64,000 bases of DNA from Alicyclobacillus sp. SO9 (lineage in GTDB: Bacteria; Bacillota; Bacilli; Alicyclobacillales; Alicyclobacillaceae), in NCBI RefSeq assembly GCF_016406125.1, contig NZ_CP066339.1, positions 1,302,001-1,366,000 on the forward strand, given 5' to 3'. The notes beneath the pieces are model-generated. The model saw only the letters and a program-made list of their open reading frames with translations, had not been told where the DNA came from and made no database searches. A program made the position numbers and the translations under genes. How positions within the stretch are numbered: position 1 is the stretch's first letter; the number at the start of each line of letters is the position of its first letter. Of this stretch, positions 14,641 to 27,863 are shown in pieces.

Positions 14641-14734
14641 TTTTCAAGGAACAGAAATTTAATAGAGCAACTACATTATGGTTTTACGTAAACCAATTCA
14701 GCAGCTGTTCTTAATATACAAGGAGTGGTCTGTT

Positions 14735-16615
14735 ATGAACCGAAAAGCCGTCTCACAAGACGAGTCAACAGGCCACATTCGTGAGAATCCCCGCGAAGTC
14801 CACGAAGACGCAATCATGCGCGCGTGGGTAGAAGCTCAAACAGCGGATACCAGTGAGCATGCAGATGAGTGGATAGATTGGAAGGGAATCGAACGTCACG
14901 TTCTCAGGTTACAGCGACAACTGGCCCACGCAGTCGAACACAACAATCGTAAAGCTGTGCGTCACTACAAGTGGCTCATCCGCACTAGCCATCACACCAG
15001 GCTTCTGGCCATTCGGCACGTGACACAAGAAAACCGTGGACGCCATACACCGGGAGTGGACGGAAGGACCTACGCCACGCCAGAAAAGAGACGTGAGTTA
15101 AGTGGACTCGTCAATCTCCAGAGTCGCCTCTTACCCGTTCGGCGTGTGTATATCGTCAAGAAAAACGGAAAACTCAGGCCGCTCGGCATTCCAACTACCC
15201 ATGATCGCGTGTGTCAGGCCATTCATAAAGCGGCTATGGAACCAGAATGGGACATCCAGTTTGCGCCCAACACGTACGGATTCCGTCCACAACGATCGAC
15301 ATGGGATGCCATGAGTCAAGTCTTCGCGAACCTCTGCAAGTCAGGCTCGGCACCATGGGTCATCGAAGGGGACATACGCGGCTATTTTGACAACGTCGAC
15401 CATGCGAAACTCTTGGCCAAATTGGCCCCGGAGGACCGTGTATATGTTCGGCGTATGTTGAAAGCCCCGGTCCTCGACCCCGAAGAAGGCCTGCAGGCAA
15501 GCACGCGGGGCACTCCGCAGGGTGGCCTAGTTTCGCCGTTAATTGCGGTCATCGCGCTGCAGGGTATGGAGAAGGATTTGCGGCAAAAGGCCTTCCAAAT
15601 GAAATTCGGAAGTAGCCGTGCTAACCCTGGCATCAACATCGTCTCTTACGCGGATGACTTCATTGTCACGTGCAAAACGAAGGAGCAAGCAGAGCAGTTC
15701 GTTCCAGTCATCGCCCAGTGGCTTGCGGATAACGTAGGCGTCGAACTCAGCCTAGAAAAAACTCACATAACCAATGTCAATGACGGATTCGACTTCCTCG
15801 GATTCCATGTCCGCAAGTACAAGGGACAGCTATTGATTAAACCCGCTAAGGACAGTAAACTCGCTGTTCTACGGAAAATCAAAAGTATACTGGACGCGAA
15901 CAAGTCAGCCAAACAATCCATGGTCATTCGACTGCTTAATCCTATTATTCGCGGGTGGGGCAATTACTACAGCACACAGGTCAGCAAAAAAGTCTTCGCA
16001 TACTGTGACCATCGAATTAACCAGATGCTGTGGAGATGGGCAAAACGACGTCACCCTAAAAAGAGTGCAAAGTGGCTATACCAGAGGTATTTTGCCCGAA
16101 TCGGAAGCCGAAACTGGGTATTCTCCGACGGCACCTTCACTCTAGCCACCATGACTGATGTTCGCATCATTCGTCACATCAAGATACAGGGACGCCGTTC
16201 GCCTCACCGACCAAGTGACCACGAATACTTTGAGGCAAGGCGACAACAACTGCTACTCAAGCGTTTGAATGGCTTCCAGAAGAAAGTGGTGCGCAAAACT
16301 AACGGACGATGTGCTCTCTGCGGATGTAATATATCTGCAGAGCACTTCCGTCGCTGGCAGGTCAACGGAGATAATGACATCCTTTTCGCTCGAATGATTC
16401 CCGAACGATTAGGTGGGCACAACACGATTGAAAATGTAGTCGTCACGCATCGATGGTGCTACGAAAAATATCGCTCCATCAATGACTATGATACTTTGCC
16501 AGACAATCCAGAACGCTATCTTTCCGGTCAGGAAAGCATTGTTAATGGACAAGTGGTTTGGCATGAAAAACGCTCAGAAGGCCAACGACGACAGCAAAAC
16601 TGCAGGATGGCTTGA
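14735..16615 (+). CDS. ltrA: Group II intron maturase / reverse transcriptase with HNH endonuclease (LtrA-like)
   Basis: This intron-encoded protein of 626 aa appears intact. It has RT motifs with TPGVDG, LGIPTTHDR, YGFRPQRS, the catalytic SYADDF, and DFLGF. A maturase X domain (IIRGWGNYY) and a C-terminal HNH zinc module with CALCGC and a later C follow. It should splice its intron and drive target-primed reverse transcription. ATG 14735 follows AAGGAG. The longer frame to 14678 lacks such a site. The stop codon overlaps the first base pair region of domain V, which is usual for compact introns. Confidence 0.9.
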   Translation: MNRKAVSQDESTGHIRENPREVHEDAIMRAWVEAQTADTSEHADEWIDWKGIERHVLRLQRQLAHAVEHNNRKAVRHYKWLIRTSHHTRLLAIRHVTQENRGRHTPGVDGRTYATPEKRRELSGLVNLQSRLLPVRRVYIVKKNGKLRPLGIPTTHDRVCQAIHKAAMEPEWDIQFAPNTYGFRPQRSTWDAMSQVFANLCKSGSAPWVIEGDIRGYFDNVDHAKLLAKLAPEDRVYVRRMLKAPVLDPEEGLQASTRGTPQGGLVSPLIAVIALQGMEKDLRQKAFQMKFGSSRANPGINIVSYADDFIVTCKTKEQAEQFVPVIAQWLADNVGVELSLEKTHITNVNDGFDFLGFHVRKYKGQLLIKPAKDSKLAVLRKIKSILDANKSAKQSMVIRLLNPIIRGWGNYYSTQVSKKVFAYCDHRINQMLWRWAKRRHPKKSAKWLYQRYFARIGSRNWVFSDGTFTLATMTDVRIIRHIKIQGRRSPHRPSDHEYFEARRQQLLLKRLNGFQKKVVRKTNGRCALCGCNISAEHFRRWQVNGDNDILFARMIPERLGGHNTIENVVVTHRWCYEKYRSINDYDTLPDNPERYLSGQESIVNGQVVWHEKRSEGQRRQQNCRMA

Positions 16616-23421: not shown

Positions 23422-23835
23422 ATTTACCCTCCTGTACATTACCCTCCCGACTGAATTCGTCTTCTTCTAAAGATGGCCTTCGCCGGGAAACGTATGACTA
23501 GTTACGGTGCCTTACTTTAATGAGTGTTGGTGCGGATTCCCTGATTCGGAGACCATCGACCATCGCAACACCATTTACTAAGCAATACTTATTAATATAA
23601 ACTTAGTAATTTAAACTGAATAATAGCTTGTGTAGCTTTCCGTGTCAAGGTCAGCAGTTCAGAGGTTTAAAACCCATGCAGAAGTCGTCGGGGCTGGCTC
23701 CGGGTGCGCCTGTCGATGAACGACATGGAACCTGCCCCGTGCTCCGAGCAAAGTAGCCGCGTCCCAGTATTTTTTCAAATTCAATGTAACCAATGGAGTC
23801 TGCAGTACACTAATAAAAGAGGGGGGAGAACAGGT
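23422..23835. other. Intergenic region upstream of the ECF sigma operon
   Basis: This 414-bp divergent intergenic region includes an AT-rich core (about 23570-23640) likely to hold promoters. I see no convincing small gene or RNA. A possible ECF-type promoter lies at its right end. Confidence 0.5.
23785..23811 (+). promoter_or_regulatory. Possible ECF-type autoregulatory promoter
   Basis: TGTAACC (23785-23791), with the AAC core of ECF -35 elements, is followed after 16 bp by CACT. The start would fall close to the GGGGGGAGA ribosome site of the sigma gene. This is weak pattern evidence only. Confidence 0.3.
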
Positions 23836-24339
23836 TTGGAGTCGCTCAGTCCGAAAGAAGCAGCCTCAGTGTTGTTTGAGAGGCACGGAGACGAGGTTTA
23901 CCGATACATACGTTACACCATAGGAAATGTTCCCCAGGCTGATGATATCCTCCAGGAGGTTTTTCTTCGCGTACTCCAGTCCTGGCATCGTTTCCAACAC
24001 CAATCGACGCCGAAGACCTGGCTCTGGGCAATTGCGAAGAACTGCATACGAGATTACTTTCGCAGCAGTAAACGGACAAACCAGCAGGTGCCCCTTGATG
24101 AGCAACTTCTTGATGAAACAAGCGGCGATTACCTCCTGAAACTCCAGCTTGAAGACAGCCTGCAGTCATTATCGGTGGCACACCGGGAAGTCTTCGTTGA
24201 ACGTATTATTCATGACAAGAGTACTGAAGAGACGGCACAGACACTGGGTTGGAGCGCGTCAAAAGTGAAAACAACGCTTCATCGGGCCATGAAGCAAATA
24301 AGGAAATCCCTTGCTGAAGGAGGCCACCATCGTGGATGA
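23836..24339 (+). CDS. ECF-type RNA polymerase sigma factor
   Basis: This 167-aa protein has sigma-70 region 2 (LFERHGDEVYRYIRYTIG, ADDILQEVFLRVLQSW, WLWAIAKNCIRDYFR) and region 4 (LSVAHREVFVERIIHDKSTEETAQTLGWSASKVKTTLHRAMKQI). ECF factors direct polymerase to stress or envelope promoters. The TTG at 23836, six bases after GGGGGGAGA, gives the usual ECF length; the longer frame adds 44 atypical residues. The stop overlaps the start of the next gene, the usual arrangement with an anti-sigma or membrane partner. Confidence 0.85.
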   Translation: MESLSPKEAASVLFERHGDEVYRYIRYTIGNVPQADDILQEVFLRVLQSWHRFQHQSTPKTWLWAIAKNCIRDYFRSSKRTNQQVPLDEQLLDETSGDYLLKLQLEDSLQSLSVAHREVFVERIIHDKSTEETAQTLGWSASKVKTTLHRAMKQIRKSLAEGGHHRG

Positions 24340-25105
24340 AACTGAAGAACTACGCAAGAAATTCCGCCCCCTTGCTCAGACCACGGTGCCACAGGCAGCT
24401 CGCGCGAGAGTCCAGGAGATGATTGATACCCATAATCCCAACAGCACTTCTGGCAAGAGGATTACTTTCGCCGAAATCTGGCGCGGTACAGGAGCAGTCC
24501 TGGCGGCGATGATCGTTGCTAGCTTCGTTATTCTTCACGTCAAGAATCCGCTGCCGTCTTACACGACTGCCGGGACAGGCAAGCCGGGGATTGAGGTGGG
24601 CTGGCAGTTCTCCCTCTTTGCACCATATTTCGTCCTTCTGGGCATGAGCGGGATACTGTTTTTGCTGGCATGGATTGGGCGCAAAACGGCGTTTGCACTC
24701 GCTTTTCGCTATCACAGTCTAAGTTGGCTTATTGGGTCAGGCACGGGTCTACGCTTGTACGATTCAGCGCGCATGCAGACCTACATTGCAATTCTCTTCT
24801 CGTGGGTTATGTTTGCCATCTTTGTAGCTCCCAGAACTACGAGCCCCTTTGTCGGGGTTGCGGCCTTCTTGCTGTTTTCCGCTCTGTGCGGGAGTCTCCG
24901 TTATCTGCTGTTTGCAGTTGTCGCGTTGCTGCTTGCAACGGTACCCGCATGGTGGATGACCGTCTTGCCTAGCAGCGGGATTGAAAGCTGGTATCGCTTA
25001 ATCTTTTTCAATATCGTATTTTTCATTATGACTCCAGGTTTAGTTCTCATCTCTAGTCGCAATGCAATGATTCGGCGTTTGCAAAAACGGAAAGGGGGAA
25101 GGTAG
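24332..25105 (+). CDS. Membrane protein, probable anti-sigma partner
   Basis: A cytoplasmic N-terminus of about 50 residues (MDETEELRKKFRPLAQTTVP) precedes about six hydrophobic helices. The gene starts at GTG 24332, 7 nt after GAAGGAGG, and overlaps the sigma gene by 8 nt, so the two are translationally coupled. Position and topology fit an anti-sigma factor that holds the sigma at the membrane. I see no recognisable zinc anti-sigma motif, so the role is inferred from context. Confidence 0.6.
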   Translation: MDETEELRKKFRPLAQTTVPQAARARVQEMIDTHNPNSTSGKRITFAEIWRGTGAVLAAMIVASFVILHVKNPLPSYTTAGTGKPGIEVGWQFSLFAPYFVLLGMSGILFLLAWIGRKTAFALAFRYHSLSWLIGSGTGLRLYDSARMQTYIAILFSWVMFAIFVAPRTTSPFVGVAAFLLFSALCGSLRYLLFAVVALLLATVPAWWMTVLPSSGIESWYRLIFFNIVFFIMTPGLVLISSRNAMIRRLQKRKGGR

Positions 25106-25107
25106 TT

Positions 25108-25815
25108 GTGGCAACCAGATGGGTTAAAGGTATCGGCGTGGTCATTCTGTTGGTGCTGGTCCTTGTGGCCGCCCTCTACACGTATTTCAACGGAACCTTT
25201 TGGGGACGGGCATCGGCTCAACGACAGATTCAAAAAGCCCTGCAGGCGGAGTATGGCAAGATGAAACTCCATCAGATAGGGGGAGCCTTATACAACTTTG
25301 AGTCACATAGGTATGATGCCACGGTGGTATTTGACAAGCGTCCTGGCGTCAAATACTTCTTCGAGTTAAACAAGGGTCAACTTACATACGATGGGACAAA
25401 TACCTTACGCGCGCCCATTCCTGTGCCCTATAACACCGGTTGGATAAGCAGTCCGACTTCTGTGCCTCCCAGCCCGGTGAAGGGGGTGTCTGTAACAGAC
25501 TTGAATTGGAGCATCGGAGCGGTCAGTCCTAAGAACCTCAGTATGGATAGGCAAAAATACTCTTTTACAGCGACTATTGAAAACCAGACAAAACAGCGTG
25601 TACACGTGACAAAAGTCGTATTATCGTTGCCTGGAAAACTGGGCCATCACTTTCTTTCGGGGGTGCAGACCATCTCTGTAGATAGAACTCTCAAACCAAA
25701 AGGGTATACCTCGGTGTCAGGGTTCTTTATCATCAAGACGAAGGGGATGACGAAACAGCAGATCCTCGGATTGGGTTCCATCAAGGCGAGGGATTTCACC
25801 GTTTATGTAGCGTGA
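25108..25815 (+). CDS. Single-pass membrane protein, sigma operon
   Basis: An N-terminal membrane anchor (VVILLVLVLVAALYTYF) is followed by an extracytoplasmic domain of about 200 residues with beta-rich character. The gene begins 2 nt after the previous stop, with AAAGGGGGAAGG as ribosome site, so it belongs to the sigma operon. Its C-terminal half (residues 130-235) has the alternating pattern of an Ig-like sandwich. I do not recognise a family. It could be a sensor or an envelope output of the sigma system. Confidence 0.6.
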   Translation: MATRWVKGIGVVILLVLVLVAALYTYFNGTFWGRASAQRQIQKALQAEYGKMKLHQIGGALYNFESHRYDATVVFDKRPGVKYFFELNKGQLTYDGTNTLRAPIPVPYNTGWISSPTSVPPSPVKGVSVTDLNWSIGAVSPKNLSMDRQKYSFTATIENQTKQRVHVTKVVLSLPGKLGHHFLSGVQTISVDRTLKPKGYTSVSGFFIIKTKGMTKQQILGLGSIKARDFTVYVA

Positions 25816-26400: not shown

Positions 26401-26555
26401 CCGCGCGAGCAATGGAGGCGATTCGCATTCTACACTCATTACGGGTGATGACAGGGAACATATGGAGAAGTATGGAAAAGAATCTGCGAAGGTAACGCAG
26501 TGAGCAGCTAAGATGGAGAACGATAGGCACCAAAGAAATTGGGAGATGGTTGTGG

Positions 26556-27863
26556 ATGGAGCCTCTTAGGTACGACCTTTTGACAGACCGCATCGTCAAG
26601 TGGGCGGAAGATAGGGACGATATTCGCCTCGTAACAATCATCGGGTCGCGTGCACGAACGGATGTGCCGGCGGATTTGTGGTCAGACTTAGATCTGCTGC
26701 TGTTCACGAAACACCCAGACATTTATCTATTAAATGCTAAGTGGCTTTCTGAACTTGGTGAGTATCACCTAACGTTTCTCGAATCGACCGCCGTTGGGGA
26801 TTTCGTAGAGCGACGCGTATTGTTTGATGGAGGACTAGATGTCGATTTCGTTCCTTTGCCGATGCACGTCATTCAGGGTGATGTTGCGCCTGAGATGTCC
26901 GCAGTGCTCCAACGTGGCTATCAGGTTCTCGTTGACAAGGACGGGCTTTCACTAAAACTTCAAAATGCGGCAGGAGCAATCAAAAATTCGGAGATTTCAG
27001 CACCTGTCATTCCGACCGATGCGTCACTCCTGCATTTAGTAAATGACTTCCTTTACCACGCAGTCTGGTCGGCAAAGAAGTTGTGTCGAGGAGAACTGTG
27101 GACGGCTAAGATGTGCTGTGATGGCTCTATGAAGCGCCAACTTCTGCAGATGATGGAATGGCATCATCAGGCTTGCACAGAGTCGTGCGATACCTGGCAT
27201 GAAGGGCGATTTCTGGACTCATGGGCTAATCCGGGTGTACTCAATGACGTACGCCAGTCCTTTGCCCTGTACGATGTGGATTCAGTCTGGACAGCACTCC
27301 TCACGACCACTGACGTGTTCGGACGACTTGGCAAAGAACTTGCCGTGCAGTTGGGGTACAAATATCCGACAGATGCGCATAGTTATGTGACAGGTCTCCT
27401 CCGAGAGTATCAAGATACAGACATTTTGGTATCGGCGAAACACCACACGGTTCCCTCTCAATCGGAGCGCACAGGTTATTTACACCATGTTGAAGTCAAC
27501 GTATCTCATCTCGAAAGCTCGATACAGTTTTGGGGATGGCTGTTAGACTACTTGGGCTATCAGCTTTATCAAGAGTGGTCACAGGGGCAAAGTTGGAAGA
27601 AGGGTAACACCTATATTGTGTTTGTTCAAACTGTGCAAAGACATCTGGAGACTGGGTATCATCGAAAGCGCACCGGGCTAAACCATCTCGCTTTTCATGC
27701 TGAATCACGAGAAGAGGTCGACGAATTGACCCAGGTTCTGAGGACGCGGGGCATTCCTATTCTGTACGAATCCAGTCACCCCTATGCCGGAGGACCCGAA
27801 CACTATGCAGTGTTTTTCGAGGACCCAGACAGAATCAAAGTTGAGCTCGTGGCACCGGAATAA
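26556..27863 (+). CDS. Aminoglycoside 6-adenylyltransferase-like protein fused to a VOC domain
   Basis: Residues about 1-285 resemble streptomycin adenylyltransferases of the ANT(6)/AadK family. They show the nucleotidyltransferase motif GSRARTDVPADLWSDLDLLLF with the DLD metal ligands and a third Asp in LDVDFV. Residues from about 310 to the end form a glyoxalase/VOC unit (YLHHVEVNVSHLESSIQFWGW, GLNHLAFHAESREEVDEL, HYAVFFEDPDRIKVELV). That unit has the conserved H and E metal-site positions. The frame is continuous with no stop between domains, 435 aa in total. ATG 26556 follows GGGAG. The fusion is unusual. The VOC part could bind drug or act on a separate substrate. Confidence 0.8.
   Translation: MEPLRYDLLTDRIVKWAEDRDDIRLVTIIGSRARTDVPADLWSDLDLLLFTKHPDIYLLNAKWLSELGEYHLTFLESTAVGDFVERRVLFDGGLDVDFVPLPMHVIQGDVAPEMSAVLQRGYQVLVDKDGLSLKLQNAAGAIKNSEISAPVIPTDASLLHLVNDFLYHAVWSAKKLCRGELWTAKMCCDGSMKRQLLQMMEWHHQACTESCDTWHEGRFLDSWANPGVLNDVRQSFALYDVDSVWTALLTTTDVFGRLGKELAVQLGYKYPTDAHSYVTGLLREYQDTDILVSAKHHTVPSQSERTGYLHHVEVNVSHLESSIQFWGWLLDYLGYQLYQEWSQGQSWKKGNTYIVFVQTVQRHLETGYHRKRTGLNHLAFHAESREEVDELTQVLRTRGIPILYESSHPYAGGPEHYAVFFEDPDRIKVELVAPE

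What the first reader, a model, noticed from the sequence alone, without database searches (positions are those of the whole stretch)
26556..27863. ANT(6)-like adenylyltransferase fused to a VOC domain
A continuous frame joins a nucleotidyltransferase with intact GS and DxD motifs to a VOC domain of the type found in bleomycin-binding, fosfomycin and glyoxalase proteins. I know of no common fusion of this kind. It could combine two resistance mechanisms or signal a different substrate.
Basis: partly seen in the sequence, partly recalled or inferred. Interest (0 to 1): 0.6.

Follow-up and report, generated by a model that had tools for sequence, protein, structure and literature searches.

The report
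Drug-modifying enzyme with extra C-terminal domain
One bacterial gene really does join an enzyme of the type that inactivates streptomycin to a second, metal-enzyme-like domain; the join is old and genuine, and in this bacterial group the same second domain has been joined to several unrelated small-molecule-modifying enzymes.

Summary
The fusion is real. Window 26556-27863 (+) is one open frame of 435 aa: an ANT(6)-superfamily nucleotidyltransferase (NTase; PF04439, E 3e-38) followed by a VOC domain (PF00903, E 1.5e-9; 3ct8-like, E 4e-57). Alicyclobacillus sp. ALC3 aligns continuously across the junction; there the VOC is broken while the NTase is kept (dN/dS about 0.15). The NTase lies outside the clade of ANT(6)-Ia, AadK-like and AadS rows and misses NCBIfam cut-offs, but keeps the conserved aspartates. 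The VOC keeps 43 of 43 conserved positions, including three residues aligned with FosA's metal ligands. NTase-VOC was found only here and, decayed, in ALC3. The wider finding: this VOC lineage is an intact C-terminal fusion in 7 of 59 genomes of the order, on the NTase, a RimJ-like GNAT, a tabtoxin-resistance-like GNAT and one unassigned domain; none of 73 same-class carriers outside the order shows a fusion (three long frames read, the rest too short). Best reading: two separately folded enzymes in one chain. Substrates unknown. New variant of a known kind, moderate interest.

The parts
26556..27863 (+). fused CDS, 435 aa (ATG; alternative TTG at 26550)
   Evidence: open frame without stops; GGGAG at 26541-26545 read by eye as a possible ribosome site
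26580..27395 (+). nucleotidyltransferase domain, residues 9-280 (PF04439, ANT(6) superfamily)
   Evidence: Pfam E 3.4e-38; PDB 8vxb ANT(6)-Ib E 3.6e-12, 2pbe E 1.6e-11; Foldseek top hits of the predicted domain are the same two entries
26643..26693 (+). GS motif (G30-S31) to DxD (D44, D46)
   Evidence: S31, D44, D46 invariant in 12 of 12 rows
26844..26846 (+). D97, third conserved Asp
   Evidence: invariant in 12 of 12 rows
27396..27479 (+). linker, residues 281-308
   Evidence: between the two Pfam ranges; codons 291-307 diverge fast from ALC3 (dN 0.51 against 0.14 in the NTase)
27480..27848 (+). VOC domain, residues 309-431 (PF00903; 3ct8 subfamily)
   Evidence: Pfam E 1.5e-9; 3ct8 E 2.9e-59 for this part alone; 43 of 43 conserved positions kept
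27486..27488 (+). H311, putative metal ligand
   Evidence: aligned with H7 of FosA 1npb; His in 59 of 60 rows, gap in 1
27684..27686 (+). H377, putative metal ligand
   Evidence: aligned with a His of FosA 1npb; His in 60 of 60 rows
27843..27845 (+). E430, putative metal ligand
   Evidence: aligned with a Glu of FosA 1npb; Glu in 58 of 60 rows, gap in 2

Best explanation
The gene encodes two separately folded modules in one chain. The N-terminal module is a nucleotidyltransferase that most likely transfers AMP from ATP to a hydroxyl group of a small molecule, as ANT(6) enzymes do with streptomycin; its own substrate is unknown. The C-terminal module is a VOC-fold protein with an intact His-His-Glu site that probably binds a divalent metal and does the job of the free-standing 3ct8-type VOC proteins of Bacilli, of which this is the only copy found in the genome. 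The fusion belongs to one VOC lineage of this order that became attached, repeatedly or by partner exchange, to the C-terminus of small-molecule-modifying enzymes. Shown: the fusion, that it predates the split from ALC3, conservation of both sets of key residues, recurrence with other partners, loss of the VOC part without loss of the NTase. Inferred: both catalytic activities, metal binding, independence of the two halves, the detoxification role.
For: Both domains pass curated Pfam cut-offs. Key Asp residues are invariant across the NTase superfamily sample; NTase dN/dS against ALC3 is 0.143/0.956. The VOC keeps 43 of 43 conserved columns. Each of the 86 class genomes with this VOC shows one match at E<=1e-40 (at most ten candidates per genome were scored), and G000 has only the fused copy (next match E 0.099). 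Unrelated partners share the VOC lineage: NTase, GNAT PF13302, TTR-like GNAT (1ghe E 2e-27), one unassigned domain. In ALC3 the NTase-linked VOC is broken while a second intact VOC sits on another protein. The other six members of the NTase clade are not fused (frames read; the G046 copy is cut short).
Against: No activity was found stated for either half or for any 3ct8-type VOC. In G037 three TTR-like GNAT-VOC copies have all lost an intact VOC and no intact copy was found, and three quarters of the surveyed genomes of the order (44 of 59) have no such VOC at all, so its job is dispensable. A shared substrate cannot be excluded. The full-length model was too poor (mean pLDDT 47.8) to judge contacts between the domains.
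Confidence: 0.55

Rival explanations
1. A bifunctional resistance protein: the NTase adenylylates a drug and the VOC binds or modifies the same drug or a co-occurring one.
For: NTase superfamily includes streptomycin-modifying ANT(6). VOC has weak similarity to FosA (1npb E 0.00055). Another fused partner is like the tabtoxin resistance protein. In G024 an NTase remnant lies near APH-type (E 7.4e-18) and ANT(2'')-type (E 7.5e-30) genes.
Against: NTase and VOC both miss curated resistance-family cut-offs. The VOC is lost while the NTase is kept in ALC3. Relatives of each half occur alone. No single obvious substrate suits all the partners.
Confidence: 0.22
2. The VOC is a passive tail (dimerisation, stability or ligand-binding module) without catalysis of its own in the fused protein.
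For: Several different partners; VOC breakage beside an open N-terminal domain in ALC3 and in three G037 copies.
Against: The putative metal-site residues and 43 of 43 conserved positions remain in the window copy, as in free-standing relatives; a passive tail would be free to lose the metal ligands.
Confidence: 0.15
3. Accidental read-through fusion with no functional consequence, on the way to loss.
For: The fusion is rare, has decayed in ALC3, and an internally deleted NTase remnant without VOC is all that was found in G024.
Against: It predates the split from ALC3 (NTase 77% identical, dS about 0.96) and the window copy has kept all 43 conserved VOC positions.
Confidence: 0.08

Closest known systems
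ANT(6) / AadK / AadS aminoglycoside 6-adenylyltransferases (PF04439; 8vxb, 2pbe)
   Same: Same Pfam family over the full domain, same conserved Asp residues, best sequence and fold matches
   Different: About 22-26% identical, separate clade, below NCBIfam cut-offs, and followed by a VOC domain
3ct8-type VOC protein ('putative glyoxalase' in the PDB; the tool shows no organism)
   Same: E 2.9e-59 over the whole VOC part, no gaps
   Different: The solved chain is a single domain of 146 residues; here it is a C-terminal domain
FosA fosfomycin thiol transferase (1npb)
   Same: Same fold family; the three residues aligned with FosA's metal ligands (ligands recalled) are kept
   Different: Fos_GSH 26.4 bits against a cut-off of 180; the K+ loop of FosA (recalled) has no counterpart that I can see in the alignment
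GNAT-VOC proteins of Alicyclobacillales (L032-L035, L067)
   Same: Same VOC lineage at the C-terminus of a small-molecule-modifying type of enzyme
   Different: The N-terminal enzyme is an acetyltransferase, not a nucleotidyltransferase

Membership tests
PF04439 Streptomycin adenylyltransferase superfamily | whole-protein score above Pfam gathering cut-off | tested here: met
   131.8 bits against 22, residues 9-280
ANT(6)/AadS proper | NCBIfam equivalog cut-off | tested here: not met
   AadS 115.6 of 450, ANT_6 78.3 of 420, AadK 50.5 of 600 bits
ANT(6)/AadS proper | falls inside the clade of characterised ANT(6) enzymes | tested here: not met
   own 8-row clade, 100/100, branch length 2.03; some rows in that tree have long branches, AadS among them
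ANT(6)/AadS proper | adenylylates streptomycin at position 6 | not testable with these tools
   needs an enzyme assay
nucleotidyltransferase active site | GS, DxD and third acidic residue | tested here: met
   S31, D44, D46, D97 invariant in 12 of 12 rows
VOC superfamily (PF00903) | score above gathering cut-off | tested here: met
   38.7 bits against 20.6
VOC metalloenzyme | His-His-Glu ligand triad in sequence | tested here: met
   H311, H377, E430 by alignment with 1npb and conservation
VOC metalloenzyme | binds a divalent metal | not testable with these tools
   needs purified protein
FosA fosfomycin resistance | NCBIfam cut-offs | tested here: not met
   Fos_GSH 26.4 of 180, FosA8 30.3 of 300, FosA7 29.9 of 305 bits
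bleomycin-binding protein | membership in a bleomycin-resistance equivalog | tested here: inconclusive
   no such NCBIfam model among the 20 listed at E up to 10; whether the library holds one was not checked
anti-phage defence protein | PADLOC model match | tested here: inconclusive
   only PDC-S09 at E 0.042 over residues 13-53; the library gives no cut-off

The most novel reading that the evidence does not exclude
In Alicyclobacillales one VOC lineage is an exchangeable C-terminal detoxification module: it is joined to different drug-modifying enzymes (adenylyltransferase, tabtoxin-resistance-like and RimJ-like acetyltransferases) and carries out a second chemical step on their products or on a companion toxin, so that one chain gives two-step inactivation.
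Probability: 0.12. Interest if true: 0.65.

Novelty: new variant of a known kind. Interest (0 to 1): 0.36.

Why it matters
Both halves belong to known families, but no described architecture that joins them turned up in the searches made here, and the recurrence of the same VOC on several unrelated modifying enzymes offers a natural set for finding out what 3ct8-type VOC proteins do: their partners narrow the guesses, and matched fused, separate and VOC-less homologues exist for comparison. If the two halves act on one compound it would be a compact two-step resistance protein.

Tried and rejected
Assembly or frameshift error at the junction: rejected, because ALC3 aligns continuously across it.

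Widespread known architecture: rejected within what was searched. NTase survey: 71 of 398 class genomes matched at E<=1e-15. Apart from the window's, I read seven frames there (L108-L111, L120, L140, L141), including the three longest (386, 427 and 380 aa); none carries a VOC. The rest were judged by open-frame length alone, all 328 aa or less. VOC survey: 86 of 398 class genomes and 5 of 398 phylum genomes matched at E<=1e-40. The three long frames outside the order (G239 276, G326 249, G359 203 aa) were read: the VOC starts at or shortly after a start codon behind sequence in which I recognise no domain (no family search was run on it). The other 70 frames outside the order are 183 aa or less. 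Plasmids: 458 records matched, 0 with one place covering 80% of the query. Viral contigs gave no relative of the NTase subfamily or of the VOC.

Shared neighbourhood with ALC3: only the gene itself matched between window 10001-50000 and 20 kb around the ALC3 gene, at ORFs of 80 aa or more and E<=1e-10. Window 14678-16615 has an 81%-identical relative about 9 kb from the G024 remnant, but it is a group II intron reverse transcriptase/maturase, a mobile gene, so I do not read it as conserved order.

Structure: AlphaFold on the full fusion failed (mean pLDDT 47.8, pTM 0.32; only two rows covered the NTase). A second job on the NTase domain gave 77.8; its matches to 8vxb and 2pbe are strong by Foldseek E-value and Z (1.6e-14, Z 21.9 for 8vxb) but with rmsd 12-17 A, so the placing of its lobes is not reliable.

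Fisher test of fused against separate (7 and 6 in the order, 0 and 73 outside, p 3e-7) is descriptive only: the four GNAT-A fusions are one lineage, and I counted the frameshifted G029 copy as separate and left out the broken G037 and G045 copies. One origin of the fused state is not rejected (p-AU 0.419).

Promoter and terminator scan: counts no higher than in shuffles by a clear margin (promoter 1 found, mean 1.4; terminator 2 found, mean 1.2), so nothing was concluded about transcription.

Literature: searches showed no paper on this fusion among those listed. The listings were partial (17 of 18, 2 of 2, 20 of 64, 20 of 1,084, 12 of 145, 4 of 4, 10 of 64, 15 of 153 papers), and only titles and abstract openings were seen, except passages of PMC7641849 and PMC10343464. 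A recalled parallel, bleomycin N-acetyltransferase with a second domain, was looked for and no paper on its structure was listed.

An earlier count gave tentative numbers for the metal-site residues that are off by one; H311, H377 and E430 are right.

Full report
What is there. Window 26556-27863 (+) is one open frame of 435 aa without stops. Pfam places PF04439 (Adenyl_transf) over residues 9-280 and PF00903 (Glyoxalase) over 309-431, both above the curated cut-offs. The best PDB relatives are ANT(6)-Ib 8vxb and 2pbe (aminoglycoside 6-adenylyltransferase of Bacillus subtilis) for the first part and 3ct8, a 'putative glyoxalase', for the second. The gene is single in its genome.

The join is genuine. 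Its DNA aligns with the window gene from the NTase through the linker into the VOC, to about residue 340 (775 of 1013 bases). There a TGA stands at the start of the VOC and about three quarters of the domain are gone, but the NTase is open and under constraint: dN 0.143, dS 0.956 over residues 4-290. The 34 surviving VOC codons give dN 0.22, dS 0.81, and the linker evolves fastest (dN 0.51). A third genome, G024, has an internally deleted NTase remnant with no VOC match in the 19.9 kb around it. The window gene and ALC3 share no neighbours in the stretches compared, while ALC3 and G024 share a divergent GNAT gene next to it, as read by eye.

The nucleotidyltransferase. It scores below the NCBIfam cut-offs of AadS, ANT_6 and AadK. 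In a 31-row tree it sits with ALC3 in an 8-row clade (100/100) that also holds proteins without a VOC from G042, G045, G046, G226, G132 and G307; ANT(6)-Ia, AadK-like and AadS rows lie outside (some branches are long, and one row, L121, was dropped for a stop). In the class survey the same subfamily stands out by score (254 bits or more) against the rest of the superfamily (115 bits or less), with a model built from this subfamily. A model of the domain (mean pLDDT 77.8) matches 8vxb, 2pbe and LinB best, with high rmsd. So it is an ANT(6)-superfamily enzyme of a separate subfamily. Streptomycin is not excluded: AadS, only 25.91% identical to ANT(6)-If, is listed as conferring streptomycin resistance (PMC10343464, passages).

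The VOC domain. It is 59-68% identical to other VOC proteins, mostly free-standing and mostly from Bacilli. Against 45 reference rows there are 43 positions conserved at 95% or more, and the window copy keeps 43 of 43. H311, H377 and E430 align with three FosA (1npb) residues that I recall as its metal ligands, and are invariant where present (59, 60 and 58 of 60 rows, the rest gaps). It misses the fosfomycin-resistance cut-offs. In the class survey each of 86 carriers showed one match at E<=1e-40 (at most ten first-look candidates per genome were scored), which fits a function that needs one copy.

Recurrence. In the order, 15 of 59 genomes carry the VOC at E<=1e-25. Intact fused copies are in 7: G000 (NTase); G028, G010, G018 and G025 (GNAT PF13302; PDB relatives of the G028 one are RimJ/RimL- and spermidine-acetyltransferase-like); G062 (GNAT like tabtoxin resistance protein 1ghe, E 2e-27); and G020 = ALC3 (a 143-aa stretch, at best weakly DUF4440-like, E 0.043 below cut-off, no NCBIfam match). 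Separate copies with an open frame are in 5 (G032, G026, G002, G012, G061). Copies in G029 (frameshift), G045 (two stops) and G037 are broken. Outside the order, 73 class genomes carry it; the three with frames over 185 aa were read and are not fusions, the others are too short. In a 60-row VOC tree all 8 fused rows, the broken G037 row included, fall in an 11-row clade (94/90) with three separate ones (G032, G026, G029); the window VOC groups (91/85) with the G062, G020 and G037 fusions. Neither branch reaches that tool's 95/80 mark, and one origin of the fused state is not rejected (p-AU 0.419). So either one fusion was followed by partner exchange or a few fusions happened in one VOC lineage.

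Loss. In G037 three TTR-like GNAT-VOC copies have three different VOC lesions while the GNAT matches have no stops. Together with ALC3 this suggests that the N-terminal enzymes can do without the VOC, and, in G037, that the VOC function itself can be lost. Free-standing relatives of the GNAT partners exist too: G003 has a GNAT-A gene with no VOC match in its 3.6 kb locus, and G063 and G008 have TTR-like GNAT matches without one (the latter two carry a stop).

How it probably works. The NTase presumably uses metal ions held by its Asp residues to transfer AMP to a hydroxyl of a small molecule (inferred from the superfamily). The VOC presumably binds a divalent metal and acts on its own ligand. 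The variety of partners, the low constraint on the linker and the loss pattern favour independent action over a shared active site. This is inference; no activity was measured, and the full-chain model was too poor to use.

Novelty. Literature searches listed no paper on this fusion; the listings were partial and the library is only part of the literature. A related theme, VOC domains near putative ligand-activated antibiotic-resistance genes with EVE domains, is mentioned in PMC7641849 (one passage). The architecture is a new variant built from known families.

Noticed in passing
G037 (Ferroacidibacillus organovorans SLC66 contigs L023, L024; also L176, L179, L180): Three TTR-like GNAT-VOC paralogues in one genome, each with a different lesion in the VOC part while the GNAT matches hold no stops.
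   Followed up: partly
L099 5465-9822 (G024): An NTase remnant lies in a cluster with an APH-type gene (PF01636), an ANT(2'')-type gene (PF10706) and GNAT-like genes, which looks like a chromosomal collection of drug-modifying enzymes.
   Followed up: partly
L031 283-1923 and L038 1724-3112: In G026 and G029 the non-fused VOC of the same clade directly follows a DUF7309/DUF6930 gene (Pfam on the G026 gene; the G029 gene by eye); the G029 VOC is frameshifted.
   Followed up: partly
L173 (G020:C1:4449729-4450073): A broken GNAT-A relative lies about 1.9 kb after the intact VOC fusion of ALC3, hinting at local exchange of partners.
   Followed up: no
L101 5522-8009 (G002): A classical ANT(6)-type gene and a separate VOC gene lie about 1.2 kb apart with one other gene between them.
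   Followed up: no
L012 (Sedimentibacter sp. SX930 contig 4): Its VOC sits among nearly identical Trichococcus copies in the tree; recent transfer or a mis-assigned contig.
   Followed up: no
window 14678-16615: Group II intron reverse transcriptase/maturase (PF00078, PF08388, PF13655), with an 81%-identical piece in G024 at L099 1-693.
   Followed up: partly
window 23704-25815: ECF sigma factor gene (PF04542, PF08281) overlapped by a gene without Pfam hit that reads like a membrane protein, followed by a YfjL_N-type gene; perhaps a sigma/anti-sigma unit.
   Followed up: no
L139 2665-2880 (Halorussus limi plasmid): A stretch inside the VOC match is labelled cpxA efflux pump by the plasmid database's resistance prediction; the label looks doubtful.
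   Followed up: no
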